From: Patiria pectinifera
Taxonomy: Eukaryota; Echinodermata; Asteroidea; Valvatida; Asterinidae
DNA: 64,000 nt
Assembly (NCBI GenBank): GCA_029964075.1
Contig: CM057135.1
Location: forward strand, 30,555,366-30,619,365
Direction: 5' to 3'
The notes under the pieces are model-generated. The model saw only the letters and a list, made by a program, of their open reading frames with translations, ran no database searches and was not told where the DNA came from. Positions 7,570-44,500 of the stretch are shown here, one piece after another (the first letter of the stretch is position 1; each line of letters opens with the position of its first letter). Position numbers and translations under genes: made by a program.

Positions 7570-7592
7570 TTTTTATTGGCTGATATCTCGGC
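6640..7592 (-). CDS. USP38: USP38 exon with start codon (coding part 7569-6640)
   Basis: The ATG at 7569 opens a 310-codon reading frame that ends at the donor AAAAAG|GTAAAC. The N-terminus MDKILLGIAAS is USP38-like. An acceptor TTTCTCAG|GCC at 7592, 23 bases upstream of the ATG, indicates an intron in the 5' UTR. The encoded region is helical and contains WLSWPRVQ and AQKFTILI, both characteristic of USP38. Confidence 0.93.
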
Positions 7593-8450: not shown

Positions 8451-9419
8451 CATATCCAGTTATCCGGTGAATGACCTTTCACGTTGTTACCTTCACCAAA
8501 CTGTTGAGGGCGCTATGCGTTTTATTCAGTTCCTCAATTATTTTCTCAATATCAACACGTCCCCCCCCCCCACCCCACCCCGGCCCCGCACCAAGTTCGT
8601 TTTGTCCGATTTTAATTTTAGAATGGAGTAATTTTTTGTATTACTCTAAAAAAAAAAATATTACATGACGGGAAGGGGTTCTTTCTAACCTAACATTAAT
8701 TAACCAAATCCAAATCATATTAAATGCAAAATTGCAATCAACATTTTACCCATGCAGCGCAACCCCTGCCGTACCAGGGGCGGATACAACAGGAAACGGG
8801 AGAAGGGGGGGGGGGGGTGAGTAAGCAATTTTGGGAATAAATTTAGGAACTTAGCATCCAATTACTGTTTTGGCTCAATTGTACTAGTATCACAACATTA
8901 TTCAGCAACTGACGGGTTGCGGGGGGGGGGGTTGTCATCCCCCCCTTTAGATCCGCCACTGCCTATATATCTCTTGAAAAAAATTCACTGGGAAAACCAT
9001 GGCACACGAGAAGAGGTTTTCATAGTCTAACTTCAAATAATGCTGTGAGGGCCCCCCCCCCCCCCCGCCTCCCCCTAGCCCTCTCGATTTCCCCCAACCC
9101 TGGCGAAAACATTTTCCTTCCAAAAATCGGTCCTCAACTGCGCCTTTAAGTTGTAACCTGGTACCCAGACTGCCCACACCCCCGTAATGAGATTTTGAAC
9201 AAATTTCAGTCGGGTATGCGTGTAGAACCAGACTTACTAAATTGAATAGGAAAAAGGCGCCATTGTTGTCCTGAAAATTACTGATCGGCGACAATGTGAA
9301 GGCGCACTGTGGTCTTTGTTTGTGGGCATTTCCTGATCAAACTGGAGGCTCAAAATGAACCCAAATCGGTGAGAAATCTCTCTAAATTCCAGCTGCTTGC
9401 CTTGGAGGGCATCAGGCGT
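8451..9419. promoter_or_regulatory. Head-to-head intergenic region of USP38 and ANKRD10, probable bidirectional promoter
   Basis: USP38 leaves to the left and the ANKRD10-like gene to the right within about 1 kb. The stretch contains an ACGTCATC half-CRE at 8419, a GAGGGCGCTA motif at 8506-8515, and poly-C or poly-G runs near 8563, 8806, 8921 and 9052. Some of the latter belong to a dispersed 'GATCCGCCACTG' repeat around 8940-8965. No long open frame with splice support is present. The ANKRD10 5' UTR must lie at the right end; an in-frame open stretch from 9309 lacks an ATG before 9420. Confidence 0.5.
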
Positions 9420-9623
9420 ATGATGGAGCAGTCACCAGCCCTGGGATTTTGGGATAAATCGAGTGAAGATCATCTCTGCAGTCGGTTTCCCGTTCACCGT
9501 GCGTGCCGTGATGGAGCGGCGGGGGCTTTGTCTGTGTTGCTGGCGCATGGCGAGTATGATTTGTACACGGAGGATCAGTTCTACGGTTGGACTCCTGCAC
9601 ACTGGTCAGCGTATTATGGCAAG
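9420..9623 (+). CDS. ANKRD10: ANKRD10 exon 1 (start codon, first ankyrin repeat)
   Basis: This 68-codon exon ends at donor GGCAAG|GTATAT, phase 0. It encodes MMEQS, then RFPVHRACRDG and FYGWTPAHWSAYYGK, close to RFPLHRACRDG and FYGWTPVHWAAHFGK in human ANKRD10. Confidence 0.9.
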
Positions 9624-21525: not shown

Positions 21526-21669
21526 TTATACAGCTTGTCCTGGTTTTGTACCGTTCATAGTGGTAGCCATCTTGTACTGGGTCAGTGGCATCTGGGCTTG
21601 GTTGGTTTCCTGACCGGTGCCGTGGGCCAGGTCCCATTCCTTGGTTGGCTTGATGACGTTGTTGAACTT
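21526..21669 (-). CDS. SLC6 gene last exon (C-terminal tail)
   Basis: This exon runs from acceptor TTTGCAG|AAGTTC to TAA at 21528-21526, coding 47 residues. It contains [15 protein letters not shown], a W-aligned tail like KPS.DWGPAL of GlyT1, and ends KPGQAV. Confidence 0.9.
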   Translation of the reverse strand, partial: KFNNVIKPTKEWDLAHGTGQETNQAQMPLTQYKMATTMNGTKPGQAV

Positions 21670-24600
21670 CTGCAAACCACAAAGGAGAAACAATATCAGA
21701 ATGAGTCAATCTGGGCTCTGTGCACCAGCATTTCTCTTCCCCCACGAACCAGTAAAGGGTATGACCTCCGGGAATGGTGGGGAGACACTTTTGAAAGGGG
21801 TGGCGGGTGGGGTTTATATCTCGTCACTCTAGAGGGATCCAAAAGTGGGCGGAGAAATGAACAAGTTTTAAGTGTTGGAGGGGGGGGGGGAGGGATAAGT
21901 CCCCCTCCCCCTTCCTGCTTCTGCGGCCTATGACCTCCACTTGTCCTCACTGGCACGCGGTGCTACTAGTTCATTTGTACTGACTTTTAGCCATGTAAAA
22001 CAAAAATTACCCAAAACTCAATTTGTTTAGAATACAAAATCGTGAAGTTTAAAAATCGTTCCAATTTGGCACAGCATTCCTATTACAACTGAACGCCCTT
22101 CTTGCTGACGACTGACACAAACCATGTACCTCTATGATGGTGCGTCCCTCAGCCATGACGAAGTTGAGCACCATGAAGATAGGAATCATTGTAGGAGCGA
22201 TGAACGCCATGACCCAGCCCAGAGCCTCACTCCATGCTGGGTATTGGTAAGTACCGTAGTAGACTGGCACGTACTCGTAGATACCAAATCCAATGATGAA
22301 CTGTCCACAAAAGAAAGTCATAAATTCAATGAGATAATAGCGAAACGTGCGATTCTTACATTATTATTGATCAAACCAAACCTCTGCCTCATTGTGCTCA
22401 GTATGTATTTTTGTTCAAGACCTCATATGATTATTAATTTAAAGTTTGATCTTCCCATTTTTTTATTTTTTAATCTTTAATTCACATCTTTTGTAAAACG
22501 CCTGTTACTTGTTTTTACTTCAAATGCCCTCTTTTGACTGTTTAGCTATAGCGTTGGCATCCAAAAAGTCAATTACTTGAAATGCAGTTGCTATTACAGA
22601 TGGAAAAGGACTGCTTGGCTTAATTATTTCGTTGACAGTTGAAAAATTGTTGAATGTTTAATTTGAAGTGTCTATGAAACAACTGTTTTGCTTATTATGA
22701 TGGTTCTGCACACTTACCAGGATGATCGCCGGTGTGACGAAGAGCCAACAGATGCAGTACCACCACCAGAACACGGTCTCATAACCCAACATCTTCTTGA
22801 TATCACCGATGAAACGCCGGAATCCTGCAAGTCGGCCAATCAGAGAAGATTAATGATTACCTTGGCAACATCACTCATGCATCACACTTGCAAACACTAT
22901 ATTTAGGCTTTTCTGTTCTCTCAGCAAGAATCAGGCAATAGTGCCATCAACAGATCATGCACAGATAGGATAGAACGTACTGCAAGTAGCACACTAATGA
23001 GCGTACTTATTGACTGTGAGGATATCATATGACTGGTTACTGATACTGACCATAGAAATAGGCTATAGCGATGCATTCCGTCATACCAACGATCATCAGA
23101 GATATCCAAGCACTATACCAGTTGATCAACTCAAACACGTAGATACCACCCTGACGAGAAAAAAAATTAATCCATGTCTTACAAACTATTGTGATAGTAA
23201 ATTTGTAAGTTTTTGATTCTTCCACTCTTGGAAAGCATTGAACATATATCCTCAGTGCAGGCCACACACTGAATTTAAATTTACACCTCCCAATGCAAAA
23301 GCTTCAATCAAAAGTAACATATGACAGCAATTAAACGGTCTGTTCATAGAGGAGGGGAGATTATTTCAAGAATTCTTTATAAGCCTGATGATCAGGGGTA
23401 ATAATCATTTACCCATTACTGGTATGTGATTTTGGGTGCAATCCATCGTCTAGTGTTCCCGTTTCTTACCCTTGTCACCAGAGGTAACCCCAAGAGGAAG
23501 AACAAGCAGCAGATGCCAAGAGCAAACAGGGTCTTCCGTTTCCTGAGATGGTCAGGAAACTGGTCGATGAAGCCACTGATGACAGTTTCTGTCATGCCAA
23601 ACTGTCAGTAGGAAAAACAAACAACCAGTCAGCACGGATGCTGTGATTAAACTGCTGGGTCTGTCAACATGGGCCCGACGGTAAGTGGGAATGGAAGAAA
23701 TAGTTGTCACACCACGGAATGTGCTGATAATGAATATTTTGTCATCAAGGTCAGAGGTTTCGGCAGGAAAAATTAAAAAGAGGAAAATGACTATGGAATG
23801 GAGAAATTGATTAGTGTTGGGAAATATACATCCCAAAGGCATAACCTCAATAGTGTATGTTCAGTTGTAAAACAGAAAATACTACATTTAAAGGGAATAT
23901 ACATCATTTGCTTTTGCTGTAATTTTCAAAAATGGATGGAATTGGGGGGTTGGAAATTTATAGCAAATATAGTTACACTGACTTTTTTGAGGTTTTGGGT
24001 TCGAAAATGCTATAAAAACTAAGGAAAACAATCATGTTCCTGTAGTCTGGTTCCCTGACTCCATTTAAGAAGAAACAGAGCAGTTTACATATATTGGGGA
24101 ATTGTAAGGTCACGGAACCAGTCCAGCTGGCTTGTACCCGTTCATAGGTGTGTAGTCGATTGCAAACAAGTGCGATGGTCAACTGGGGCCAGTATTTGAA
24201 AAAAAGCCAGTTTTTTCCAACGCTGATCGGCCGATCAGCGTTGGAAATTGATACAAAAATACCACTTTTCTTGAAAATGACAGTATACCAGGTGCCATGA
24301 TTTTACAGGATGCTTTACACTGTCATTCACTAAAAGTCCAGCAAGGTATTTCAAAATGATTTGGTAGTTTTATTTTTTGATGTTTGCAAATGTTGTATTT
24401 TCCCTTTAATACAGGATACTTACTCATTATAAAAAAGCTTTCCCGCTGCTTTTAATTTTCAAAGTGTTTAATTGTATACCCTTTTCAAACACAAAATAGG
24501 AATTGATTCGTCAACCTTTTCTTAAACATGCCCTAAAGTTCATAATGTTCTTACACTTCTATTGCACAAAGGGTACAGCCATCAATTTCAACTATGCTGC

Positions 24601-27600
24601 CATTGGCCAGTGGAAACCATGTGACTGCATTTCCTGTTGTGTGATTGGCCAGCATGACCTACCTGTGTGTCCAATCCGACAAGGAAGAGCATGAAGAAGA
24701 AGAGGAAGGACCAGAGAGGAGCCAATGGCATCTGGGCAATGGCCTCAGGGTAGGTGACAAATACAAGACCTGGACCTGCAATATGCAAAACAAACATGTT
24801 AAGGGTGATCTGATTGGTCAAGAGTTGTCACACTCATTAGCATATGTAATATAATTGGTGAAAAGTTGTCACATTATTAGCATATGTAATGCGATTGGTC
24901 CAAATGTTGCCACACTCCAACATGGGCCAATGTTGGCATGCAATTCCAAATGCAAGAGTTACAGTACAGAAGATTTGATTGGTTGAAAGCTATGAAATAA
25001 ACAATTACATGTAATTTGATTGGTCAAGGGTTGCATTCAGAGTTCGGTTCTTCAGGAGGTTATCTTACACTTTAAATGATAGAGAGTATTAAACATGGAC
25101 GGGGAATGGAGCTACTATACCTCTAAGTTGAGTGCATCTTAATCTTTTCAGTATTCAGTTTTTCAAGCCAACACAGCAAAAATATCAATTGTATCACAAA
25201 AGAAGAATTTTATTTTTTACCTTGGATAGCCACGTCCCTTATATCCATTCCTGTTTTTACTGACATGAAGCCCAGCGTTGCAAAGACCACAAATCCGGCA
25301 AAGATGCTGGTACTGCAGTTGATGATGGGAACCATGATTGCATCCCTAGGTATTAAAAAAAAAAATTGAACATCAATTTTAAGTTTCATCAAACTTCCTT
25401 ATCTTGTTTTACATCTTCTTGCGCATGTACTGTCTGCTTATTGCACTACTAGTGGCCATTTCAAGATTCCCTGAAGTGGTTGAAACTTGTAGGAGCACAA
25501 CGTTTAGGAAAAGAAAATGTTAAGGCAAACATTTGTTATGTTGGATTAAGTAATTTTTTACCTAAAGCAGTTGTGGTTGAACTTGTTGTAGCTGGAAAAT
25601 GTGAGGACACCGCCCCAAGCTGGGCCAAGAGAGTAGAAGATTTGTGAGGCAGCATCATTCCAAACCTTTCCAAAGAGAAAAGAAAGTCACCAAAGAAGTT
25701 ATAGAAATTTCTGTTTTTTAAAATATTTTTATACTAGTCGGTGATATAATCCTGTAAACCAAAACTAAAAGGAAGGAAGATTCGGGGCTAGAAAGTGTAA
25801 TTACGCTCAGGTTAAACTAAAAAATATAACCTTGAGCTATTTTATTCAAAGACAGACTTCTTCCCAAGAACCTCTAAATCTTGACTCAACATGTTGAAGA
25901 AAGACCCAACATCATCTTGATTACTTCAAGTCTCACCTTAGAGTTCTTGAGTAGCTTCCAGTCAGCATTCATGTAGTAATAGATGCCTTCACTAGCTCCC
26001 TCTAGTGTCAGAGCACGGATAAGTAAGCAGACGAGGATGACGTACGGGAAGGTTGCAGTGAAGTAAACGACCTATAATCATGAAGCAAGAATAAACATCA
26101 CATATTGGAATACTACGAATCAAAGTTGTATCAAACACTGAACCACAGAGAAACCTTACAAACATCAGTGATGAATTGAAGATTTCAGAATTGGGAAAAT
26201 AATAATTTATTGGGGCAATATGGATTGCTTAGGGACACAAGTAAATGTCCCTTGGCAGGGTTCCAGCCCACATTGCAAACAAGTGCGACACCACTCAGTC
26301 AGTGTCTCAAGGTACAAATGAATGTCTTGTCTTTCTATTAGCACCGCTCTTCCTATCAATCTGAACTGCCTCCTCGGTACTCTGCAAGCATCCCTTGCCT
26401 TGTTTAATGGTTCTTTCATCAATCTTACTCCCTCCTTCCCAGTTTCTCAATCCAACCTCTCTCACCAATTTGCAACCATTAGTGCAGTCCATTCATTACA
26501 ATTCGTCTTGCCTTTCCATCTTTTACATTTGACCTGCCAATTTTGTTTTTCTCTCTAAATGTAGTCCTACTTTGTACATTTCCTATTCATGTTTAAAGAT
26601 GTTTTCCACATGCAATATCCAGTGCTACTATGACACTCTTGGTTGTAAACAGCAATCTTATCTCGCTCGTAGGTTTGATAAACATGCTCTCTCTTCATCA
26701 GCATCAGGATGAAATTTGGGTTTCCGGTAAAGCCTCACCGCCCGTTGATTAAATTACTCTCGCAGTGCTTAAACGCAGCACCCAAGCACGCAGAACAAAT
26801 CATCTTGATCTATGCTTGAATGCTCACACCTCCAACATGCGGTGAAAGTCACTATATAGAATCAGGCTGTGTTGCCGATGGTTACTTGATATAATATTGT
26901 CTTTTTTACCGGAACATGGCCATACCTGTTCCGGTCAGAGCATACTGACCGGAACGTCGAGTTTATACCTCTGGTTCTTTTCAGAACCATTCTCTTAGTT
27001 GAGAAATTATTCGCACATGGTGTTTCCGCAAACCTTTCATTATTTAGTATCTCCACCATGCAAAGCCTCAAATCTTACTTCTGGCCACATCTGTATATAC
27101 ATCTTTAAATTTCGGCACAAGAACAAATCCATGGCTGTTGTGTCTCGTTTTTTAAATGGCCTGTAAATTTTGTAAGATAAACACTTCGTGTGCAGGTACA
27201 TAGCTATTTTTATAAATGAATAATACAAAATACTCTAGTAATTTAGTCGGTGAGAAGAGGGAAAAATTATAAATGCTGTAATTTAATTTTCATCATTGAA
27301 GTGAGAAGCACCTTCGTGATAAATTTAATCAAACAAATATTTTTTTGTGAGCGGGTTTTCTTTTTAACAAAACTGGCATTTCTGTATGCCTACAAGATAA
27401 TTGAAATATTGTTTATGTGAACAAGGTTTTAAAATTGATTTTTAATAGCGCAATGTCATGGAATTCATTTTTTTTTTATGTCACTCCATGGAAACATGAA
27501 TGATTGATGTGCACAGATCATCACTTTTTCACCTACAAAGAAATTTTAATACAGCGTTTTTTTTGCAAACAGCAAAGATTTGCGAAAAACAACAATGTGT

Positions 27601-30600
27601 TTGGAGCTGTATTAATGCATCAGAGAAAATGTTATTGAACTGTGAATGTGTGTTTTTTTTTATAAGGGTGATTGTTCGTTTAGTTTAAGAGTCTTCTGTC
27701 AAGTGAACTTTGTAATGAAATAGCGCCATAAAACTGAGTGAAGAGTCAAATTATGACGTGACCGACTGGTTTAATGATTACATTGCGCGCAAGCTGCCCC
27801 TTTTCAAACACACAACCTCCTTAATGGCATTACTTCAAAGCCCTTCTCATCTATTTTTAGTCCATATCGGGGGAAAAAGTTGCCCCTGAATAAATATTTG
27901 GTTTTGCATTATAAGCTAAGTTCGTTACAATTTGTGCCAAGCAAATTGTAGTTGCTTGTCGATACCTCTGTGTACAAAGTCTATTAGTGATGTCAAATGG
28001 ACACGTTTGGTGTTTACTCGGTTTTGATGTCTTTTTCAATAAGCCAGTGGTGTGTCATTGGTCCAAGAGGGGCACAGCCCCCTCCCCCCCCCCCAAAAGA
28101 AAGAAGCATTGTATTCCCTTATTCTCCACACTCCACAACATTCTTGACAATTTTGAGAAAAAAAAGAAAAGAAATGTGTAACATTTAAAACAATGAAAGA
28201 ACCCATAAGTTCACCTCCAGGTTCGTAGCCTCCCCCTCCCCCCTTTGTGTCCCGCTGCAGATAGGACCAAAGTTCTGTTATTGCAATGATCATAAATGTA
28301 TTGCACAATATGCAAAGACAAAGTACAAATCTAGCCTTTGCTACCTTTCCTGAAGACTTGACACCCCTGCAGATGCATAGGAAGACAACAACCCAGGATA
28401 GAAGAAGACACAGTGCCATCTGCCACCGGACTGGTCCCAAATCCTCTATTCCTTCACTCTTGTCCAATACAATCTTACTGCAATAGAAATGCATACAACT
28501 CATTTGAGAAGTCGTGATACCAGACTGGCAGTCAAATATATGCAATATTGACAAATGCTACTGACTGACTTGAACACTATTTCCCCCGTCCGTTTTCCCA
28601 GTTTCATTTTTGATCAAGAATGAATCATCAGAACTTTCAATTTGTTTGGCAACCATTTCCTTCCGAGATCCCTTGAAGAATTCACTTGGATATCAAGCTT
28701 TTCTAATTCAATAGGGTACTCTTTTGTTCACTCAGAAAATTTAATGAAATTTTGAAAATCATTTTCTTTTAAGAATCCATTAATCAATTAGTGGTCTGCA
28801 TAAACATCTGCCATCAGGCTAGCCTTGACTTTTCAAAGCCGTTCTGAATGTGCCAGCTGGTCTCATGGTAATGTAGAAATTGGAATAAAATTAATCAAAT
28901 CCTAGCCTGCTGTGATACATGTTCCTACAGTTTTATTTTAAAGGCCCAAAGTGCGTCATTGTCATCATCGTGTGGACTGTTTCTCATTTCGACACTTTAA
29001 TACACCTGTATTCTGTGAATTTTGTAACACCATCACTCCATATTTACACTGGTTTCAAACTATCAATGTTTCCACTTCAGTTTATATGTATTAAATGTGG
29101 AAGTATGAGCTCAGTGGACATTTTTGGCTGGGTGGAAAAAGTATATTTCTAATTTAAATGGTAGCGTATAAAAGCGGGCTTTCTCTAAACGGTAACTGTT
29201 TTATTTGAAAAGGTTAATTTTCAAATGTCAAGACTTTTTAATTTCACTTTTTAAACACAATTTCTGTCAGGGTCTTTAAATATTCTGTCGTGGATTTTCG
29301 AAGAGTCTGAATCTTTTATTGGAGTAATTTTGGGACTGTTTGTGTTCCTTACTTCCAGTAATCCTCAGCGGGTGTGACTGATCTGTCCGGCACACTCATA
29401 TTCATCATCTCCACCATAGTCTGGTTCAACCACGTCCCGTTCAGCATGGTGCCGTTGGGCGGCACGGCATACCCACAGTTGTCGGAGTTCCACACATTGT
29501 CACAGTTACTCCAGGGTAGTTCCAGGGTGAAAGACTTGAAGATGAAGAAAGCCGTCCACGCCATGATGATGTTGTAGTAGATGACCACCATGGCGGATAT
29601 GATGACCATAGCCCAGCCTATACCTAGTGTAAGTAGGACACCCAAATATTGGTTACAATGTATGATTTCATGAATGAAGTGCATATTTGCTGGTCCCATT
29701 CCCTGACTGACTGACTGACTGACTCCCCGACTGATTGAATGTCACTTTTGAGATGGGCAGTGCTGTCATATTGTGTTCCCCTCCAATGCCAATGCATTGG
29801 CTAAATCTAGCCCGTTTTGTATACAGATGTATGCAAAGACATCCAACGAATAGCCATTCCATTGAATACAATTTTGTGGACTTTTGAACCAGCTTGACTA
29901 GGTTTGTCTTGTTTTGTTTGTTTCATCAGCGCAATCAGAATGAAACCTTGCATAAAAGCCAACGTCATTCCACCATTCCCAGCCAAAATGTCAATTTGTA
30001 AATCAGTCCGCTTATCAATAGCTCTCCCAATTATTGATAAGAGTACAAAATACAAAATACTTGGCACCACTCAGCACATGAGTGTCAACACAGACTCATA
30101 CTTTGCACCCAGCTGAGTTAGAAACAGTCGCATTCAATAAATTGTTGGGCTCTTACAATGCCCCGTTCTTACTGTTGTTGACCTTCCTTATATAGGTCAT
30201 CATAATCAAACTATACAGGAAACGAACTTTTATACAAATATTCAGATTAATGTGCATTTGGCCAAATCGAGTGCTCCTATGTTCTCCACAAATCCCTAAA
30301 TTCTGTTTTAATCAAACGAACAGTCAACGGAGTAAAAATAAAAATCATTAAAGATTGCACATTATGCCAAGTTTTATAAACACATTTGAGAGTTTGCTTG
30401 AAAGACTTTGATCACTTTCAAAAGAGTACATTCATTTATCCTGAGATTTATCGACTGCTGTGGGATAACTATCATCCCTATATCCTCATCATTATTTGGA
30501 AAATGTGATCAACTCATAATCAGTGCGTCCTCACTTATACGAGGCAAACGACAGCATGGAGAATCCTTCCAATATGACTGTTTCCAAGCAGAGCATGAGG

Positions 30601-33600: not shown

Positions 33601-36600
33601 GCTTGAATGGCAGATTACAGAGTAGCAGGGACAGGAAAAATTTCGGACCATAAATTTATGGAATCACCCACAAATTATTGCATTTTGTTATCATTTACAC
33701 AATACTGCATCCCCCCAAAAAACCATTTCCTGACAATGTACAATATTATAACTATTTAAAAAATCATTCAATACATTTTGAATATCCAGGAGGTTAGTAA
33801 TCATCATACCTGCAAAGAGGGGACAGGCTCTCCAGATCGTGACCGGCCCCTGACTGGCATACTGACCAAAGGCCGTCTCCAGAAAGAACAGGGGCATGCC
33901 GGCCAGAAACAACATCATGATGTAGGGAATCAGAAACACTCCTAGCACCAAAGGAAAGAGAATTGAAAAAAAAATGAGTTATTTCATGCAGCTTTGGCTT
34001 AGTAAGATACAGGGCATTCACTGGCTATCTGCCTCTTGTTATTGGGAAATATACCCTCTGAAGCTACCCCCCCCCCTTATTCATATAATTGCAACAACTA
34101 ACACTTCCAACTTGGAAAATGACACTTCAGATCTCTTATTCCAAATAAGGCCCAAAAATGACTCGCAAATAATAAGGAATTAGAGACACAATGACCACAG
34201 ATTTTTTTGCCTGTTTTAAAAGTATAGGAAAGGTCAGGATTTGAGTGCCTATTTGGGAAACTGCATCAATTTCTAACTTAATGTTTATTTTCCTGTAATA
34301 ATAAATCATTTTTGAAGGGGAAACAATTAAATTTGATTGAATAGGAAAACTTGAAGTTGCGATTCACCTCCACCGTGTCTGTAGCAGAGGTAAGGGAACC
34401 TCCAGATGTTACCGAGTCCCACGGCATACCCCACACAGGACAAGATGTAGTCCATCTGTCGCCCCCAGTTACCCCTCTCAGCTACCTGGGTTGTGGTTGC
34501 TGTGTCCGCTGCAATGACCTCGTAGCCATTTCCATTTGGCTGTGTATTACAAACAAAGATACAATTCTAATAGCAGGAAGTTGGGGGTTCGAGTCCCACC
34601 TGAGTGAGCTTGTAGTACACATGGGAGTATCTATATTACAGTACATTTCTTTGTTATGGGTCGTCATTCTATGAGTGTAGCGTCCAAAGTGTGACATTTT
34701 TCCTGTCCCTGTTACCTTGGTACTTTGTAATTTACCATTCAAGTGTCATTGAGAGCGACTTCAAACCATTTTGTATTTGTTTGGTAGGTAGTTTGCTATT
34801 CATAATCACTCTTGGAGGACGACTGTGTTAGGGAGACGACTGCATTGTGTCATGTGTAAAAGTGGACCCTGAATTTATTAAATGACCCATCTGTACTATT
34901 ATTGCTCCTTTATGGCTGGCTTTAAAAAAAATTTTCTTCACAAAACAAGTACCTAACCAGTTTAGTTTCAACAGAACGTACAATGTAGCCACGAACCATT
35001 CTTTAGTTGGCTCAGAGCAAACTTTTTATTACGCCCTGCAAAAATAAGAAAGCCATAATAAAAAATATGTATTTTTAGATGATAAGCATATGTTACATAA
35101 ACTCCAGTGACTCGGAGGCTCCGTCATATTCCAAATTGAAGTCTACTGACACTGTTTCTGTTTTTGAGCAGTCATAATGTGAACCCAAAAAAAGTGGATC
35201 ACGTCTCCCATATTAGGCAGCTTTTTTTTTTTGCTTCTATTACTTTGACTGGATGGCTGGCTTAAAAAAAAATTGTCTTCACAAATTAATATTCATGAGT
35301 AGAAACGAGGAAGAACAAAAGACAAATGGACAATAATTGCAGCCTCTCATTTCCAACAAGCCTCCTTCTACAGTATCAGATTTAGAGGGGCGGTTGCAAT
35401 TCCCTCTGCCGTTCAGCAACTGCCTAATTGTATAAACTATTAAAATGGGACCAAAAAATAACAGAGCAAACTTTTATTATGCCCTGCAAAAACCAAAAAG
35501 CCACAAAATCCTTTTTTTTTGTTGAAAATAAGCATATTTTATTGCTTATGCAGAAATTTATGATTCGTACAGTCTAGCCACGAACCGTTCTTTCGATAAT
35601 TCAGAATATAATTTTTTTACGTCTGTGCAAAGACAAAAAAAGCCATAATTTTGTGTATTTTTAGATGACAGGCATGTGTTACATTAACTCCAAGGACTTT
35701 AGAGGATCCGTCAATCTCCAAATTGAAGTTTGACGTATTTATTTTCGGGTAGCCATGTGCAGCACCAGAAATGCGCTTCAAAAGTTAGATTATGTCTTCC
35801 ATTTTATTTGCCGAGGCAGCAACCAACTTCCAATTGAGCAAGCAGTGATCAAACTCCTTTTTGTGCCGTAGTGTGGTTAGGGTTTGTGACTCATGATCAG
35901 AGGGTCAGGAGTTCGAATTCAGGTGCTGGCCATTATGTTGTGTCCTAGGGCAGACTTCATCCATACTTGCCTCTCTCCAACCAGGAGTATAAATGGGTGC
36001 CGGCATTAGCTGTGGAGTAACCTGCGATGGACTAGCATCCCATCCAGGGGGAATAGAAATATTCTCTGAACCGGATTTAAATGCCGGCGCTGCCCATGGC
36101 CCAATGGGCCACACTTGCTCCTGACAGACTTTACTATTTAATTACTACTTTTTATCATCAAAAAAGTGGTGGGTAAATGCCCCCATGCCCACCCTCGAAG
36201 AAAGATAAATTGAGAATATGCTGGCAAAAGTACAGGTATTTTTTTTTAGGGGGGGGGTGGCGAAATGTGCATTACCCCCCTCTAGAAAAAATCCTGGCGA
36301 CGCCCATGGCATTCGACGTGGCAGTCCCTGGCAGGTAGGTGTGTGTGTGTGTTCCATAATTATTTGAATAATAATCTAAAGTCTTTATTCCCGAACAACA
36401 AAGTTTACCGTACAGAGGAGCCAGTTGATTGGCCAAGATCCATTGATCACGCCCCTTCGTTTTAGCGAGGAATGTGATTTGCCAGGACGACCGTCATGAC
36501 GAGCTGTCACGAACCGTCATGACTAACCGTCCAAAACGAAAGAACGCTGACCTCAAGTAGTGATGGTGGTTTGTCCGTTTGTATGGGAAGATTATTATAC

Positions 36601-39600
36601 GGCATTTGGCAAATTTGGGAAACATAGGGACCTAGAAAGGTACCCAGGACTAGCATAATGATGAAATCAATGTAAAAGGACAAATTGTTGTTTAAAGTAC
36701 CCAAAAAAGCAATGTAGGACGAGAGTTATGGCAAAATCAATATGAAAATCATGGTTTAAGTGGCCATTTTGAATTTATGCAAATTAGGCATATTTCCACC
36801 ACTTGGATTTTTGGACCTTTTTTAGGGGCCTTATAGAAATGCACTGTGCTGTGATATTTATGTATAAATATTAAATAACTAAACTTGGATTATCAGGAAA
36901 ATTCAATTGTGACATGTCCACACATGACAGCCATAATTTTAACTTTTATTTATGCAGTTTAATATATTGCATTTATGCAAATTATTATACGGCATATGGC
37001 AAATTTGGGAAACATGGGGATCTTGAAAGTTACGTAGGACTAGAATAATTATGAAATCAATGTAAACGGAATACAATTGTCGTTTTAAGTACCTGAAAAA
37101 GCTATCGAGTATAAGAAATATGACCAAATCAATGTGAAAGTCTTAAAATTTTCGGCCATTTTGGATATATGCAAATTAGGCATATTTCCACCACTTGGAT
37201 TTTTTTGGACTTTTAGTATGTCATTTTAGGGACCTTATATAAATGCACTGTGGTGAAAAAAATTCTGTTGCAATTTGTTTGAGGTTCAATCTAAAAATGA
37301 AGTATTTTGCCTGGACTATATAGTTTACTGTCATGACTGTAAACGAATATGCTTGTGCTCTATACAGTACATGTATAATTTAATACAATAGTGTTGTCAT
37401 CCCAACTACAAAGAATCAAAGTAGGTGTCTCCTGATGACGAACACAGCATATTGACTGAAAGTGAAACGTTGAGTTAAACCAACATGTTTCTTCTCTGAA
37501 CCACACAACTCACAAAGCGATATCATTTACATGGTGTTACCACAAACTCCCATTCAACAGGACTAGTCTGGGAAAAAGTTATCAATCCGAACATACCGTA
37601 ATAAACGTGTATTGCCTATGCCGTGAATTGTCGTCGCGTCAGGTGTAGGCGCTAGGTTACCAACAAAATGATGGTATTTCCTTACCTTCTTTTCCATTTC
37701 TCCCGCCTCGTCTGCACCGTTCTCCACAATAATATCCTGGATGTTTGCTCCTCCGCCTCTGTGGAAAACAGACATTATTCTCAAAATTAACGCGCGAAAT
37801 GTGCAGCTTCAACACGTGTCACTGTCAATCACTTTGCTTTTGACAAATTAATTCCAGTCATTGAAAGACTTCGATCACGAATGAGTTCGAACGAAGTCCA
37901 AAGTATTCTTCGGGACCAAGACTACATGTTAGTCAAGTTGTTGCCCGATGAATGGTATCTTTCTCTTGATCTTTAGACGAAACAGATACTTGTATCGATA
38001 CGTTCGTATAGTCAAGATTACTTGTACGTGCACAAATTAAATGGCCGACTTTAAAATGAACGGATTTCGCATGCATGCACTATGCGTACGTACATGTATG
38101 ATAATGTTGGTCACGTGGTGCGGCCGTGATCGATTGGTAAAAAGTTTTGAAGCCTACGTCTGTTCCAATATCCGATTTCAAATGTGACATTTCTGCAAAC
38201 ATTGATCCACCTACTATGTGGGTACAAATTACGAAGCTTTAAAAAAGAGGAGAGAACACATAATACCGATGAGTACCCCCCTCCCTAAAAAAAACGCGAC
38301 TTAATTGAACCTATATAAAAACATTGCCATGGTGTTTTCCTGGGGGAAAAAAGGCCACACGTCAATCCTGTCCGTATCTTACAAGACACAAAGAAGACGG
38401 GCCGCACTATAAGTCGACATAACTTTTCCCACAAGTTTGTTGACTTGCTGTGTATCTTCACTTCCCAATTGGAGTGTTGAAGACGATCGATCATTTACAC
38501 AAGACGTCCTACTTATCCGCCACCTTTAAGGGGACGGATCAATGATGAGAGAAGCAGGTGCCTTGTACTTTCATTCCTAATGTGTGGCGCTCATCCCTGG
38601 GAGCCATGCAACCTGTGGCTATGCTTCGCTAATTACCAAGAAATGCACCTGTGGTCTCACCCATAGGTCGGCTTATTAGAAAAAGATCGCATTTAGAGTT
38701 CAACATCCATTTCTGAACAAATGGTTTACATCTGTGAAGATGGTATTTCAAACGGAATGTCGTCGCCTGGTTTTTATTGTTGAACTTTGTAATTTTGGGC
38801 TGTGCATCAGTTCATATCATCAGAACTTGCAAATGGTCCCAATTAATGGGCGGCCAAGCCTAACATTTCGGAGAAATAAATGTCGAAAAATGAATCACAA
38901 TGCACGTTTTGCATTTTTGATTATTTAAAGCAAAAGGGTAAATTCTATCTTTCGTTGAAGGGAATTGAAAATTAAATAGTGTTTAAACAATAAGGCAATT
39001 ACAATGTTTGTTAAAAGTGACATTTCAGAACTTACTTACAAAAATACCGACGACTTACCAAACGCAAATTGTTATCAAATATTTAATGGACGTCTTCTAC
39101 CGAAGTGTATATATTGTAAATCGCTCTCTTTTTAACGCAGTAACAACAATAAATGCGAAGTTGGCACAGAGCCAAAGGAGAAATAAAAAAAATTAAACAA
39201 AAACCAGATCCCCCCCCCCCCCAGAAATCTCCCAGCTTTGCACAATGGCCCATTTCCCCTGCAGTCTTAGGTCTCTTAACCATGGAAACATCATTCATAT
39301 ATACATAAAACTGGGTCACAGTGAAGATGCTGTAATTTTTTTTTACTGTATCCGCGGCGATCATCAATGCAAAATATGACTCGCATTTTGAAAAAAAAAA
39401 GGATACTCGGTGTTTTAACAACGCACGATAATTTCCGACCGACTTTTTTTCTGCAAGCGCAAACGACATGCGCTGATTCTACTCCAGACTGATACACTTT
39501 CTACTTTCGTGTAAATTATGTTTATTGATTCTGTTTCGCATGTTCTTTTAGTGTATCGGCACGTATAAATGGTTGAAATATAATGATTGCAAACTTGTGG

Positions 39601-41571
39601 TTATTTTTGCATCCAATTTGCTTCCTGTAAAACCTTGATATTTGCCTCTTCTAATTGCCTCTTTTTCATTAAGTTCGAATATTACACCTTATTGTGTCGA
39701 AAGCAGATGCTACATACGGGGTAGCAGCTCAGCAAATCAGCATGCCTCTCCGTCAGTCCGCGTTAGTTAGTTAGTTAGTAACAAACGCTGACATTGTCTA
39801 TTACGCCTATACATATTTTGACCGATTTCAACCAAATTTTGTCAAAAGTATCAGTAGCCCAGCCCCAACATGTGACATGACCAAACTGGGGTCAAAAAAC
39901 TTGATTTTTTTTACTCAGAACACCACTACCAGAAATGACACATTGGCCAAAACATACACATGACTGGGGTAGCGACGACAGACGCCGATATCCGGTTGCA
40001 GTTGCAAAAATAAGGAAAACGTTCGTTATAAATCGACTTGCCTCAAGCAAAAGATGACTTATCTTTAAAAGTTAAAGGGAAGATACAATATTTGCAAACA
40101 CCACAAAACGAAATGACCAAATTATCACAAAGTACCATACTGCATTGTTAGGGAATGACAGTCTAAAGCATCCTGTAAAATCATGGCTCCTGGTGTGCTG
40201 ACATTTTCAAGAAAAATGGTATTTTTCCAACGCTGGTCGGCCGACCAGCGTTGGAGAAAACTGGCTTTTAAAAAAAAACCTGCTCCTAATTTTTCATAAT
40301 TAGTTATTCCGCGTTTTCTTTGCAATTGATTACACAACTGTGAAGGGGTACAAGCCTGCTAGACTGATTCTCTGACCTTACAATTCCCCAAAGTCTATAA
40401 ATTCTCCATTTCATCTTAAGTGGGGTCAGGGAACCGGACTACAAGAACATGATTGGTTTTCTTGGTTTTTCCAGCATCTACGAGCCCAAAACGTGAAACA
40501 AGTCTTTTAACAAATTTGCTTTAACATACTAACCCTTCAAATCCATTTATTTCTGAAAATTGCAGCAAAAGCAAATGTTGTACTTTCTCTTTAACGACAC
40601 TATATCCGTTGGTTCTTGCATAACACGTTCTTGTGTAAAACAAATCGTCTCCATTCAGTCCCTGATAATAATGTTCAGGTACGCAAATAAATTGGCATTG
40701 TCTGAAACTTCTGACATGATTCTATACAGAATTGAATTTGAAATAACTTGGAGAAGCAAGGGTGGAAAATAAGGTCAAGATGGTCATCTGAATCTAGTGT
40801 CTGCAAAATGTTTTTTTTGGGGGGGGGATTTAAAAATAGGTGTTTCACAGCTTTGTTTGCGGCGTCTGCTAGATTGTGGGCTTCCCTCCTTCCGCAAAAT
40901 TCCCCGCCATCTTGTGTGCATGGTGGTACAAACCATTACACTGAGTATACTCTTTGAGAATGTTCTTTGCTGCTGATTGAGGTCTAGGGATACAGGAAGA
41001 AAACAACAGAGCCCGAGAAAAAGATGATGTTATTTTCTGGGTAGATCATCTCCTAAGTGCAGCCCAACACTTACTCTTGTTTCTCCTTCTTCAACCTCTC
41101 CTGTCTCCCTGCAGTAAGATGCACCATCAGGCTAGCGTGTCCTCGCTTCAACCCGCTAGCCATCAGGTCCTCCTTGCTAGCAAGACTCAAGGTCTGCATA
41201 CTCTCATACCCGTTGGATTCCAGCTGATCCGCGTGCTCCATCATACCCGATTTGTCCAGGAGGCTTTCCACCGACCCGCTGAGGGTGGATTGCCCATGAG
41301 CTTGGTCGGGCTCCTCCTCCGTTGGCTGCATGCTGACGTCCCCTACATCCCTCGGAGGTTGGTCCTCATCACAGACTTCCTGGAAAGCTTCGTTATTTGC
41401 TCCTTCCATGGCTGGACTGTCTCCCTTCTTTTCCTTCAAACTTCCAACTCGATCTTCAACTACCTCCTCTCTAACAGCCAAGCCTGTGTTTTCAGATCTT
41501 TCCTCTTGCTCATGGATCGCTTTCTCTGCTTCTTCAGCCACTAACTGCACATCCTCCGCTTCCCCGCTCAT
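21526..41571 (-). CDS. Na+/Cl--dependent SLC6 transporter, glycine-transporter-like, with N-terminal SAM-like domain; 15 coding exons
   Basis: A 12-helix plasma-membrane symporter that would take up a small neutral amino acid, most likely glycine, with Na+ and Cl-. Exons in transcript order: 41571-41075, 37758-37686, 34539-34368, 33941-33810, 29623-29353, 28477-28345, 26071-25937, 25665-25562, 25345-25221, 24775-24663, 23601-23470, 23150-23051, 22824-22718, 22300-22130 and 21669-21526. All are GT/AG and phase-consistent, giving 802 codons. TM1 has [15 protein letters not shown], with Gly where monoamine carriers have Asp. TM6 has SLGPAWGG and [10 protein letters not shown], closest to GlyT1/GlyT2 (SLC6A9/A5). 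The large second outer loop has a Cys pair and four N-glycosylation sites. Residues 99-156 in the N-terminal tail look like a SAM domain, unusual for SLC6. Substrate assignment is inference; the family is certain. Confidence 0.93.
22130..22300 (-). CDS. SLC6 gene exon 14 (TM12)
   Basis: This 57-codon exon runs from acceptor TGGACAG|TTCATC to donor ATAGAG|GTACAT. It encodes [15 protein letters not shown], then [16 protein letters not shown] and [17 protein letters not shown] fits the YG.Y.YP.W outer loop of glycine carriers. Confidence 0.94.
22718..22824 (-). CDS. SLC6 gene exon 13 (TM11)
   Basis: This 107-base exon runs from acceptor CTTGCAG|GATTCC to donor ATCCTG|GTAAGT. It encodes [17 protein letters not shown], then [18 protein letters not shown]. 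Confidence 0.94.
23051..23150 (-). CDS. SLC6 gene exon 12 (TM10)
   Basis: This 100-base exon runs from acceptor CTCGTCAG|GGTGGT to donor TTCTATG|GTCAGT. It encodes [18 protein letters not shown], then [12 protein letters not shown]. Confidence 0.94.
23470..23601 (-). CDS. SLC6 gene exon 11 (TM9)
   Basis: This 44-codon exon runs from acceptor CTGACAG|TTTGGC to donor ACAAGG|GTAAGA. It encodes [18 protein letters not shown], then [16 protein letters not shown]. Confidence 0.94.
24021..24405 (-). mobile_element. TTAA-flanked MITE, copy 1 (reverse, truncated)
   Basis: The right end, GCAAATGTTGTATTTTCCCT followed by TTAA, is the inverted terminus of the family seen at 31789, 40076 and 49527. The inside holds the palindrome at 24217-24244 and GTAGTCTGGTTCCCTGACTCC in reverse. 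The left terminus is missing. It lies in an SLC6 intron. Confidence 0.7.
24217..24244. repeat. Perfect 28-bp palindrome inside MITE copy 1
   Basis: CCAACGCTGATCGG followed directly by its exact reverse complement. Equivalent palindromes occur at 31940-31967, 40227-40254 and 49677-49704, the last degraded. Confidence 0.9.
24663..24775 (-). CDS. SLC6 gene exon 10 (TM8)
   Basis: This 113-base exon runs from acceptor TTGCAG|GTCCAG to donor ACACAG|GTAGGT. It encodes [17 protein letters not shown], then [18 protein letters not shown], clearly SLC6 TM8. Confidence 0.95.
25221..25345 (-). CDS. SLC6 gene exon 9 (TM7)
   Basis: This 125-base exon runs from acceptor ACCTAG|GGATGC to donor ATCCAAG|GTAAAA. 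It encodes [19 protein letters not shown], then VVFATLGFM. The Asn and Ser in TM7 match the Na+/Cl- site region. Confidence 0.94.
25562..25665 (-). CDS. SLC6 gene exon 8 (TM6)
   Basis: This 104-base exon runs from acceptor TGGAAAG|GTTTGG to donor TTTAG|GTAAAA. It encodes [14 protein letters not shown], then [19 protein letters not shown] and SYNKF are shared with GlyT1 and GlyT2. Confidence 0.95.
25937..26071 (-). CDS. SLC6 gene exon 7 (TM5)
   Basis: This 45-codon exon runs from acceptor TTATAG|GTCGTT to donor TCTAAG|GTGAGA. It encodes [20 protein letters not shown], then [28 protein letters not shown] is invariant in the family. Confidence 0.95.
26931..27080 (+). mobile_element. Penelope-like repeat, copy 2 (5' truncated)
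   Basis: It is nearly identical to 12422-12576 from CGGTCAGAGCATACTGACCG through CACCATGCAAAGCCTCAAAT. The upstream CTCCTGAAGA part is missing. It lies in an SLC6 intron. Confidence 0.7.
28345..28477 (-). CDS. SLC6 gene exon 6 (TM4)
   Basis: This 133-base exon runs from acceptor TTGCAG|TAAGAT to donor GGAAAG|GTAGCA. It encodes [18 protein letters not shown], then [20 protein letters not shown], the SLC6 TM4-to-inner-loop motif. Confidence 0.95.
29353..29623 (-). CDS. SLC6 gene exon 5 (TM3 and glycosylated outer loop 2)
   Basis: This 271-base exon runs from acceptor ACACTAG|GTATAG to donor TACTGGAA|GTAAGG. TM3 contains [15 protein letters not shown]. The loop has [15 protein letters not shown] (a Cys pair, presumed disulphide) and sites NGT, NGT, NQT and NMS. 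It ends in AEDYW, matching SEEYW of glycine transporters. Confidence 0.95.
29702..29724. repeat. (CTGA)n microsatellite
   Basis: Five and a half CTGA units in the SLC6 intron between exons 4 and 5, 80 bases from exon 5. Confidence 0.85.
31789..32314 (+). mobile_element. TTAA-flanked MITE, copy 2 (full length, 526 bp)
   Basis: TTAA at 31785-31788 and 32315-32318 flank ends AGGGAAGATACAACATTTGC and, inverted, AGAGAATGTACACTAACATG. The central palindrome is at 31940-31967. TTAA duplication and AGGG ends suggest a piggyBac-type non-autonomous element. It has no coding frame and lies in an SLC6 intron. Confidence 0.75.
32572..32828. repeat. Tandem duplication, unit about 125 bp, two copies
   Basis: Two adjacent blocks share CCTGTGGTTTAGATTAGC, TTGATTCAGTCTTGTG, AAGAGTACACAGATGTTGTA and ACAGCGCTGGCTGCGCTTT. 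The second starts near 32708. It is intronic in SLC6. Confidence 0.8.
33522..33642. mobile_element. Short hairpin-ended element (MITE-like)
   Basis: CTTGTCCCTGTTAC at the left and GTAGCAGGGACAGG at the right are inverted. Its right part, 33556-33642, is the reverse complement of 34695-34806, so an opposite-facing relative lies beyond exons 3 and 4. Confidence 0.6.
33810..33941 (-). CDS. SLC6 gene exon 4 (TM2 and first inner loop)
   Basis: This 132-base exon runs from acceptor GTGCTAG|GAGTG to donor TTTGCAG|GTATGA. It encodes [20 protein letters not shown], then [20 protein letters not shown], typical of glycine transporters. Confidence 0.95.
34368..34539 (-). CDS. SLC6 gene exon 3 (TM1)
   Basis: This 172-base exon runs from acceptor ACACAG|CCAAAT to donor GGTGGAG|GTGAAT. 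It encodes [18 protein letters not shown], then [19 protein letters not shown], the SLC6 signature with Na+ and substrate contacts in unwound TM1. Confidence 0.95.
34565..34806 (+). mobile_element. tRNA-derived SINE fragment followed by an inverted relative of the 33.5 kb element
   Basis: GGGGGTTCGAGTCCCACCT at about 34590 is a perfect B-box/T-arm, but no full cloverleaf surrounds it. The segment 34695-34806, with CCTGTCCCTGTTACCTTGG and GGTAGGTAGTTTGCTATTCA, is inverted relative to 33522-33642. Confidence 0.5.
34967..35215 (+). repeat. Dispersed repeat family B, copy 1
   Basis: It contains ACAATGTAGCCACGAACCAT, TTATTACGCCCTGCAAAAA, GATGATAAGCATATGTTACA and AACTCCAGTGACTC. Related blocks lie at 35458-35805, 45757-45820, 46845-47190 and 54080-54310. 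No coding frame is evident. Confidence 0.7.
35458..35805 (+). repeat. Dispersed repeat family B, copy 2
   Basis: It shares TTATTATGCCCTGCAAAAAC, CAGTCTAGCCACGAACCGTT and CCATGTGCAGCACCAGAAAT with the copy at 46845-47190, and runs on into a SINE. Confidence 0.7.
35862..36130 (+). mobile_element. tRNA-derived SINE
   Basis: The head resembles an RNA polymerase III promoter: GTGTGGTTAGGG (A box) and GGAGTTCGAATTC (B box). The body has CCAGGAGTATAAATGGGTGC, CGGCATTAGCTGTGG and GATGGACTAGCATCCCATCC, a pattern common in SINEs of marine deuterostomes. The tail GGCCCAATGGGCCACA recurs at 47205-47222, where the head is missing. Confidence 0.75.
36588..37256. repeat. Tandem duplication, period about 390 bp, two copies
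   Basis: Blocks starting near 36588 and 36979 share ATTATTATACGGCAT, GGCAAATTTGGGAAACAT and GCAAATTAGGCATATTTCC plus CACCACTTGGATTTTT. It is intronic in SLC6. Confidence 0.85.
37427..37556 (+). mobile_element. Penelope-like repeat, copy 3 (diverged)
   Basis: It contains CTCCTGATGACGAACACAG, GTGAAACGTTGAG and, at the far end, ATGGTGTTACCACAAACTCC, the same order as the other copies. It lies just past SLC6 exon 2, within the intron. Confidence 0.65.
37686..37758 (-). CDS. SLC6 gene exon 2 (cytoplasmic tail)
   Basis: This 73-base exon runs from acceptor TTCCACAG|AGGCGG, phase 2, to donor AAGAAG|GTAAGG, phase 0. It encodes [19 protein letters not shown]. It is a linker with no known motif. Confidence 0.8.
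40076..40590 (+). mobile_element. TTAA-flanked MITE, copy 3 (full length, 515 bp)
   Basis: TTAA at 40072-40075 and 40591-40594 flank AGGGAAGATACAATATTTGC and the inverted end AGAGAAAGTACAACATTTGC. The central palindrome, 40227-40254, is perfect (CCAACGCTGGTCGG arm). It lies in SLC6 intron 1. Confidence 0.8.
41075..41571 (-). CDS. SLC6 gene exon 1: start codon, acidic tail and SAM-like domain
   Basis: The ATG at 41571 has an in-frame TGA about 50 bases upstream. It codes 165 residues plus two bases and ends at donor CAAGA|GTAAGTG. Residues 1-95 are acidic. Residues 99-156 follow the SAM pattern: [10 protein letters not shown], then [19 protein letters not shown] and [10 protein letters not shown]. 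If the donor were ignored, the frame would stop immediately (GAG TAA), which could instead mean a small separate SAM protein. The phase-2 donor fits the phase-2 acceptor of the next exon exactly. Confidence 0.8.
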
Positions 41572-44500
41572 CTTGCAAACGTCTTCGTAAAACCCAAATA
41601 CAATCCTCCTTATTGATTGTCATCGACAAAACTTCTCGGCAAAAGTTTTCCCAGGTCTCCTCATCAATTTTAAATGATGGCTGCAAAGGAGTTCTTTTGT
41701 TCCCGAAGTTAACACAAGAGCTTTTGGTTGGTTTCCTCCATGTTGGAACAATAAATAAATTGTACTTGTTTGGGATTTGTCCCGATATACGTCAAACAAG
41801 GAATCGATAATTGCTAAGTGATTGTCGAGTGTTTCGAAGGAAAGCATGGTAAACAGCAACGGATGGTGTCGAGTAATCGATTTTCTTCATTTCAACTCGA
41901 TCACTTGAGCATCTTCGAAGGACATCTATTTACAATTTAATAGTAACACTAATCGAGTCACAAACCTTCGGTTCCTCCTTGTTCCTCCTTGAATGTAAGG
42001 GTAAGGTGTTTGAGAGGACGTTTATGTTCAAGACAGTCACTTTAAGGATAAATCTATCGCCACATCTCATCCCACAGTATTACTGGCACATTTACTAGGC
42101 ATAAACGCGTGCCTTAAGTAACAAAAACTGGTTTTCAGTCGACCTTTTTTCTTTTTGAAGTTATGGTGGAAGCAATAACACCAAATATCAGGCGGGTTAA
42201 CGAAGAAGCCCTTAGCGGTTCAGCCCCGCTATAACAAGCAACTTGGCCTGGTGTTCCTGATGCATCGGAAAGCATGACATGAGAGATCCTCTTCGCATAA
42301 AAGATTCAATCTTTCTCCTCTTCTTCTTGACAATTCAATAAGATGTTTGCTTTGCCAGTGATAGCTGATAGCTTTCCGTTCCTTGAGGAAAAACAGCTTC
42401 TCAGGCATCGGTTCTTGATTTGATTTCATGTAAGGTAGGAGCATCATGTTCCCATGGCCATGCCATAAATCATCCTCATGAATGTCCCATCGGATGCTCT
42501 GGTTTCTTCACACACACAGACAAATCTCTGGGTTACGAGAGGGTGTGGATTGGGCTAGTTACTATTTCCATTTTAGGGCAGCATTGCTATCAAGGCACTG
42601 ACCTCGGATTAACTTATTTTTACGGAAAGTCATTATTTACTCGTCCTGTATTTTTTTACAATTCACCAGAAAATTAGCCAACGCGGGCCGAATTCAAACC
42701 GTTCTTGTATCACACGGATCATTGTTCTCCCAGCTATTGATCGTTTTGATGAATTATTTTCGGTGTATTTGAGCACAACAATTTTTACATTTGCCTCAAT
42801 ATTAACATTTTTGCTTAATTTGAAGGCCCCCCCCCCCGAAAAAGCTTCCTTAGCAAAACCTTGGTTTGTTTCTAATGCCAATTTTAAATTCAATTGTTTT
42901 GAGCGAAGGGTCCAGTTGAGGTATTATGTAAATTTAAATAGGAAAAAAAAGAATTGAAAATAGGCCATCACTGAGTTTTGAAAGAATAATTTGAGATTCA
43001 TCAAACAGTCATAATAGCATAGAGTTACAGAAGCTGGTCGCTATAGTACTGTCTTGAGGCGTCGTGCACTCAAGCCCAGCAAACCGAATACCTGGGCAAA
43101 TGGACGTGTTGGGTTCATCACAAACCCGAAAAATACACATTCTTGCAAACAAGGGTTGTGTTTTCTCTATTAAGTGCATGGAGACGGTGATGGGCAAGAA
43201 ACTGTAGAAGGAGTGAGGGTGACGATGACGTCATCAATGATGGAATGCGCCTCAAGAACAAGCGAAACAAACATACGGTCGTTAACATTCAATATTATGG
43301 CTTGTAAGAAAAGGATATGTCAATAAAAGGTGGCAACATTTCTTTTAAACATATTGTGTGTGTTTTTCTAAACTAGCATTAAATTAAAAAAAGGTATAAT
43401 ATTAATATTTCATAGCTGGTGTACCCTGTCCAAGGAAATATCGATGTTGTCACAATGTGGTTTTGATTTTGCAATTGTTTTGTGGAATATGTCAAAATCC
43501 CTTGCCTCTTAGACTTGTTGACGCCATGCTTAAACCCTACGGTGTCAAGATAATCATATTAACCTTACACTGTTAGCATTATCAACGGTCACACAGTCCC
43601 CGCTTCGCTAGTCAATTACAAAGATAATACATCAACATCATCATCACTCCATGAATAAAAAGAAAACCCATCCTCCCAAGTCTGTTTCAACCGTCTTTTT
43701 TCCTCTCTCTTCGAGATTCCTGACACCCGTGAAGCATTAAGCAGTGTCCGGGTCCTGCGTGCGCGCGTGCTGGGTCCGTGTGCCGTTTGAAGATGCGACG
43801 CCCCCGGGGGAAGAGAGCGACTGATGAGAACAAACATGAGAAAGCAAGGCGGGCGCGAGTAACTTCATTACCCGCCACGTCACTATATGTCGTTTTCCGC
43901 AGGCTGGTTTTAAGCAACCAACATAAAAAAGGGCCAAAAAGTAAATCAAGATTTGATTTTACACCCGATGAGGCATATGTTAGATGCTAACAAGTGTCAA
44001 GGGAGTTTATCTACATGAAACGAGCGCGGCTTGTGACGAGAAACAATACTAGTGGAATATGTATACACATTTCAGGTTTCTTCTTTTTTCTCCATTTCTA
44101 GAATATTTCATGTTGCGCGCGTGTACTGGTTTATTTTTCGCACCTTAAGCGTTCTATATACGGAGAGGTCGTAATTTAATTCCAATACACCTCGCGGTCA
44201 ACTTGCATCCTCAAGGTATAGCTAGGATGTTATTTATTCTGTGATCACTGCGTTACATCTTGTGTCGCCAGGCAATACGGAGGCGGTTTTTGTTTTCTTA
44301 AGTCGTTGGAGGTTGGCGGTCCCACCTATATACCACGCCTACTGCTGTAGGTTACTGGTTGTTTGCGCTTTGCAAAGCAATACATGTTGTCGGAATCATA
44401 ATGTATAACCTCGGATAAAATTGTTTTACAGTGATATGTGAGATAATACAGGTTATCAACAGGTTCAACAGGTGCAAGTAGGATGAGACACCTCTTAATG

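What the first reader, a model, noticed from the sequence alone, without database searches (positions are those of the whole stretch)
41075..41571. SAM-like domain fused to an SLC6 neurotransmitter-type transporter
The first exon of the SLC6 gene encodes an acidic tail and then about 58 residues fitting a SAM domain ([29 protein letters not shown]). Its phase-2 donor GTAAGT matches the phase-2 acceptor of exon 2. SAM domains oligomerise or bind other SAM proteins. I know of no SLC6 carrier with one, so this could be a lineage-specific way to cluster or anchor a glycine-type transporter. The join across a 3.3 kb intron is inferred, not observed.
Basis: partly seen in the sequence, partly recalled or inferred. 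Interest (0 to 1): 0.75.

Follow-up and report, generated by a model that had tools for sequence, protein, structure and literature searches.

The report
SAM-domain exon before glycine-type transporter
An animal gene for a glycine-type neurotransmitter transporter appears to begin with an extra exon encoding a SAM protein-docking domain, an unusual pairing that would let the transporter be clustered or tethered, but the join between the two parts still needs RNA evidence.

Summary
On the minus strand, 41571-41075 is an ATG-started, stop-free exon of 165 codons plus two bases. It carries a significant SAM_1 match (28 bits, cut-off 23, E 2.8e-6) and a predicted five-helix SAM-like fold. Downstream I built a complete SLC6 carrier (exons 2-15) whose phases all agree; its best solved relatives are GlyT1 and GlyT2. 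The fusion itself is inferred. The exon-1 donor AGA|GTAAGT and the exon-2 acceptor are both phase 2 and score within the range of this gene's other sites, and no other sizeable initial exon and no cassette exon passed the thresholds between them. Pfam scans found no other domain on that strand in intron 1 or 22 kb upstream. An in-frame ATG at 37775 could still give a transporter without SAM, and a free-standing SAM gene is not excluded. No second SAM-SLC6 fusion was seen in the genome; one other close pair looks like two genes. The SAM has an acidic mid-loop but seems to lack residues needed for SMSr self-assembly, so I favour docking to a partner. Probable, unproven; new variant of a known kind.

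The parts
41075..41571 (-). Exon 1 (497 nt): acidic N-terminal tail (residues 1-96) plus SAM domain (about 97-165); donor AGA|GTAAGT, ends in phase 2
   Evidence: (SAM_1 E 2.8e-6)
41075..41289 (-). SAM domain segment (residues 95-165); mid-loop N120-G-Y-E123, end-helix start K142-R-G-H145
37686..37758 (-). Exon 2 (73 nt), phase 2 to phase 0, linker [24 protein letters not shown]; acceptor TCTGTTTTCCACAG
37773..37775 (-). Rival in-frame start codon upstream of the exon-2 acceptor (reads [11 protein letters not shown]...)
34368..34539 (-). Exon 3: start of TM1 ([37 protein letters not shown])
33810..33941 (-). Exon 4 of SLC6
29353..29623 (-). Exon 5 of SLC6 (includes the large extracellular loop with cysteine pair and N-glycosylation-type sites, recognised by eye)
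28345..28477 (-). Exon 6 of SLC6
25937..26071 (-). Exon 7 of SLC6
25562..25665 (-). Exon 8 of SLC6: TM6 [19 protein letters not shown], aligned with GlyT1 [19 protein letters not shown]
25221..25345 (-). Exon 9 of SLC6
24663..24775 (-). Exon 10 of SLC6
23470..23601 (-). Exon 11 of SLC6
23051..23150 (-). Exon 12 of SLC6
22718..22824 (-). Exon 13 of SLC6
22130..22300 (-). Exon 14 of SLC6
21526..21669 (-). Exon 15, C-terminus and stop codon

Best explanation
One 15-exon gene (41571 down to 21526, minus strand) encodes an 802-residue glycine-type SLC6 transporter whose cytoplasmic N-terminus carries an acidic tail and a SAM domain. SHOWN: the SAM match, the SAM-like fold of the model, an intact SLC6 frame, compatible phases. 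INFERRED: that exon 1 is spliced to exon 2, perhaps only in one isoform, since GlyT1 and GlyT2 of mammals also vary their N-terminus. INFERRED mechanism: the SAM acts as a cytosolic docking module. Its acidic mid-loop (NGYE) binds the basic end-helix of another SAM protein (an Eph-type receptor or a scaffold) and so places the transporter at a membrane or junctional site. The carrier core itself should still work as a Na+/Cl- coupled glycine or small amino acid symporter.
Confidence: 0.7

Rival explanations
1. The SAM exon is its own small gene (166 aa, single coding exon ending at TAA), which merely lies upstream of the transporter; the transporter starts at the ATG at 37775 (or at the Met in exon 2).
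For: The ORF does end in a stop; an in-frame ATG with A at -3 lies just before the exon-2 acceptor. A neighbouring-gene case seems to exist in this genome: on C10 a split SAM domain lies about 28 kb upstream of an SLC6 exon on the same strand, but SH2 and RasGEF matches lie between, so it most likely belongs to another gene.
Against: The stop sits in a perfect GTAAGT (15 of 3485 stop triplets). The nearest AATAAA after the stop on this strand is at 40551, about 520 nt on. The phase fits. A good acceptor (rank 5 of 271) stands exactly where exon 2 needs it.
Confidence: 0.2
2. Alternative first exons: a SAM-bearing isoform and a SAM-less isoform starting near 37775 both exist, as GlyT1 and GlyT2 have isoforms that differ at the N-terminus.
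For: Two usable starts in frame; N-terminal isoforms of rodent GlyT1 and of GlyT2 are stated in PMC8699752 (passages seen).
Against: No promoter near 37775 was looked for; the open reading through the acceptor may be chance. Compatible with the main explanation rather than opposed to it.
Confidence: 0.35
3. [quoted passage not shown]
For: SAM on the N-terminus of a multi-pass protein oligomerises SMSr (PMC5264588); GlyT1 and GlyT2 were detected as dimers anyway (PMC8247324 passages).
Against: Three SMSr residues whose mutation hampers oligomers are L62, G63, K66. Laid on the window SAM by eye, through the L-G-H-Q-K of Caskin, they become R143, G144, S147: one of three kept. The SMSr sequence itself was not aligned.
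Confidence: 0.2
4. The SAM match is chance in an acidic, low-complexity ORF.
For: ORF length is not exceptional at this GC; codon score does not pick the frame.
Against: E 2.8e-6 in Pfam, above the curated cut-off; fold prediction gives SAM topology, with only SAM domains among the 50 Foldseek rows shown. The match lies outside the acidic stretch.
Confidence: 0.03

Closest known systems
GlyT1 / GlyT2 (SLC6A9 / SLC6A5)
   Same: Full-length SLC6 core, best matches among solved structures by sequence (631 and 624 bits); TM6 with AWGG as in both
   Different: This gene adds an acidic tail and a SAM domain before TM1 (inferred join); the alignments begin only shortly before TM1
SMSr / SAMD8
   Same: N-terminal SAM on a multi-pass membrane protein (PMC5264588)
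   Different: Different membrane protein family; end-helix residues for self-assembly seem mostly not kept
SAM domains of SASH1, Caskin and SHIP2
   Same: Nearest SAM sequences in the PDB (SASH1 E 4.2e-4 with the SAM alone); mid-loop NGYE / NGYE / NGWD
   Different: Those are adaptors or enzymes (recalled), not transporters
SAM, SH2 and RasGEF exons on C10 of the same genome
   Same: SAM exons on the same strand upstream of an SLC6 gene
   Different: SH2 and RasGEF matches lie between SAM and SLC6, and the SLC6 TM1 exon there holds an ATG of its own, so that SAM most likely belongs to another gene

Membership tests
SAM domain (PF00536) | Profile match above curated cut-off | tested here: met
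   28.0 bits, cut-off 23, E 2.8e-6; SAM_2 and SAM_EPH below their cut-offs
SAM domain (PF00536) | Five-helix bundle with long last helix | tested here: met
   Helices 7-13, 17-25, 31-36, 39-44, 49-71 of the 72-residue model; 50 of 50 Foldseek rows shown (of 242 matches) are SAM. Model from a single sequence, pLDDT 74; no match at E 0.001 or better
SLC6 / SNF (PF00209) | Full-length match over the 12-TM core | tested here: met
   689.5 bits, profile 1-522 of 524
Glycine transporters (GlyT) | Closest relatives are GlyT1/GlyT2 | tested here: met
   phmmer ranking GlyT1, GlyT2, then proline transporter 575 bits; solved structures only, no tree built
Glycine transporters (GlyT) | Transports glycine | not testable with these tools
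   Needs an uptake assay
SAM-SLC6 fusion protein | SAM exon spliced to SLC6 exon in mRNA | not testable with these tools
   Phases and splice sites compatible; no RNA data
SMSr/DGK-delta type self-polymerising SAM | End-helix residues L, G, K (SMSr L62, G63, K66) | tested here: inconclusive
   By eye through the Caskin alignment the window has R143, G144, S147, one of three kept; SMSr sequence not aligned
Mid-loop type SAM partner of Eph SAM domains | Negatively charged mid-loop | tested here: inconclusive
   NGYE mid-loop shared with SASH1 and Caskin-1; the role of acidic mid-loops is from PMC5993539 passages; binding not tested

The most novel reading that the evidence does not exclude
An animal glycine-type SLC6 transporter carries a built-in SAM domain on its cytosolic N-terminus, which docks it to SAM-bearing receptors or scaffolds through a mid-loop/end-helix contact, a mode of transporter placement for which I found no precedent in SLC6.
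Probability: 0.5. Interest if true: 0.6.

Novelty: new variant of a known kind. Interest (0 to 1): 0.45.

Why it matters
SLC6 carriers are placed and clustered, as far as I recall, by short tails, lipids and contacts of their membrane core. A SAM domain fused to one would be a direct, testable link between glycine uptake and SAM scaffolds, and a natural experiment on what an N-terminal docking domain does to an SLC6 carrier. Searches of open-licence PMC papers that paired SAM terms with SLC6, glycine transporter, sodium symporter or solute carrier terms showed no such protein in the titles and abstract starts listed: 20 of 38 papers, 3 of 3, none, 4 of 6. Protein databases of animals could not be searched, so a predicted protein of this kind may already be on record.

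Tried and rejected
Looked for a second copy of exon 1 in the genome: none but itself (4 candidates scored). Looked for SAM exons near other SLC6 loci by comparing the coordinates by eye (one search scored 82 of 314 candidates, so its list is a lower bound). Apart from the window, the closest pair I saw was on C10: SAM pieces of 16.3 and 16.6 bits, below cut-off, about 28 kb upstream of an SLC6 exon. It was followed up and rejected as a fusion, because SH2 and RasGEF matches lie between (L063 and L064 scanned, L065 not). Five SLC6 paralogue upstream stretches (L002-L006, of the many paralogues) gave no SAM remnant by tblastn: two chance-level hits, both E 1.1. In L003 and L004 the TM1 exon starts 19 residues before RGNW after a phase-0 acceptor, against 21 for exon 3 here, so an upstream exon looks normal in this group (read by eye).

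ORF length and codon score as proof of coding: rejected as weak. The CpG profile showed no clear promoter island at the exon: ratio 0.48-0.56 within it and 1.36 only at 41750-41999. The abalone paper that mentions both SAM and a glycine transporter speaks of two separate genes (PMC5405107 passages). The 166-residue AF2 model (pLDDT 62) was replaced by the SAM-only model. NCBIfam gave nothing for exon 1. In the VIA list one of 50 rows is not a SAM entry by title (9ui4_D); absence of other folds is not used as evidence. Seven upstream or antisense ORFs had no Pfam match. Long frames padded with X can hide short exons, so searches exclude only recognisable domains.

No other animal genome could be searched with the tools at hand. 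Papers other than those named were seen only as search listings.
Full report

The transporter. Exons 2 to 15 were built by hand from splice signals and join without a frame break. All 14 introns of the model are GT-AG, and phases agree throughout. The 637-residue SLC6 part matches SNF over profile positions 1-522 of 524 (689.5 bits). Its best solved relatives are GlyT1 (631 bits) and GlyT2 (624), then the proline transporter (575). The alignment shows the TM6 stretch [16 protein letters not shown] against [16 protein letters not shown] in GlyT1. So the gene looks like an intact, glycine-type SLC6 carrier. Substrate was not tested and no tree was built.

The join. Exon 1 ends in phase 2 and exon 2 begins in phase 2. 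A matrix made from the other 13 introns of the same gene scores the exon-1 donor 5.81, inside the leave-one-out range of those donors (4.5-10.0, better than 4 of 13). It scores the exon-2 acceptor 8.36 (range -0.2 to 10.1, better than 10 of 13). The donor is rank 10 of 241 GTs and the acceptor rank 5 of 271 AGs between 37600 and 41700, so neither is unique by score. The stop codon that ends the ORF lies inside GTAAGT. Only 15 of 3485 stop triplets on the window's minus strand do, this one included, which is what a phase-2 donor would produce and what a true stop rarely would. Among 16 candidate initial exons with a phase-2 donor of score 5.5 or more and an ATG between 41700 and 37775, 13 use the exon-1 frame and the other three are 50, 38 and 32 nt. 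No phase-2 to phase-2 cassette exon was found at the chosen thresholds. Pfam scans of the three minus-strand frames found no other domain at E 0.01 in intron 1, in 41500-42300, or in 42000-64000, so the SAM exon is not visibly the end of another gene. The join remains an inference.

What speaks against. There is no transcript. An in-frame ATG at 37775 reads directly into exon 2, so the carrier could start there. ORF length is not exceptional at this GC (20 of 300 random sequences at 53% GC). The codon score of the whole exon stands above 6002 intergenic windows, but its halves do not and the frame is not singled out. The exon has no second copy in the genome. No other SLC6 locus was seen with a SAM exon that belongs to it, by eye and from lists that are lower bounds. 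The nearest candidate, on C10, has SAM pieces about 28 kb upstream on the same strand, but SH2 (E 3e-15) and RasGEF (E 4.3e-8) matches lie between and the SLC6 TM1 exon there holds an ATG of its own. That case shows how neighbours can mimic a fusion. A published caution fits: database errors bias domain differences towards the protein ends (PMC3927609, abstract).

How it would work. SAM domains join through an end-helix and a mid-loop. In EphA2/SHIP2 and EphA6/Odin the basic end-helix of the receptor binds the acidic mid-loop of the partner (PMC5993539, passages). For SASH1 and Caskin1 the same mode is suggested by structure prediction and mutagenesis (PMC11820823, passages). The window SAM has the mid-loop N120-G-Y-E123, aligned with NGYE in SASH1 and Caskin-1 and NGWD in SHIP2. 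Its end-helix start reads K142-R143-G144-H145-A146-S147. In SMSr, changing L62, G63 or K66 hampers self-assembly (PMC5264588, section 5). Laid on by eye through the Caskin alignment, the window keeps only the glycine; the SMSr sequence itself was not aligned. I therefore favour a one-faced, heterotypic docking SAM over a polymer, as a hypothesis. [quoted passage not shown] The SLC6 oligomerisation review says GlyT1 and GlyT2 were detected as dimers; the term 'SAM domain' occurs 0 times in its main text (PMC8247324, find). An isoform with and one without SAM is possible, since isoforms of rodent GlyT1 and of GlyT2 differ at the N-terminus (PMC8699752, passages).

Novelty. Searches that paired SAM terms with SLC6, glycine transporter, sodium symporter or solute carrier terms showed no SAM-SLC6 protein in what they listed (20 of 38 papers listed; 3 of 3; none found; 4 of 6). 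This covers open-licence PMC papers only, judged from titles and abstract starts, and no protein databases of animals, so an annotated predicted protein may exist. I rate it a new variant of a known kind if the splice is real, and an ordinary neighbour if not.

Noticed in passing
window 2142-7572, minus strand: USP38-like ubiquitin hydrolase gene: UCH (E 3.1e-31) and Usp38-like_N (E 1.2e-71) exons.
   Followed up: partly
window 9300-14156, plus strand: ORFs that look like exons of an ankyrin-repeat protein (Ank_2 E 1.6e-4 in 9300-9638, below cut-off; 13692-14156 has no match), resembling ANKRD10 from recall only.
   Followed up: no
L062-L065 (G000:C10:16868000-16907600): SAM pieces in two neighbouring exons, then SH2 and RasGEF matches, lie upstream of an SLC6 gene on the same strand; if SAM, SH2 and RasGEF are one gene, that is worth a look.
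   Followed up: partly
L003 and L004 (G000:C10:2492700-2502600 and C10:2943200-2953100): Two SLC6 loci about 0.44 Mb apart in opposite orientation with identical translated TM1 stretches of 51 residues: a recent inverted duplication or an assembly duplicate.
   Followed up: no
genome G000: 111 SNF matches, exon by exon, many in clusters on C7, C8, C10, C19 and C21: a large SLC6 family (lower bound).
   Followed up: no
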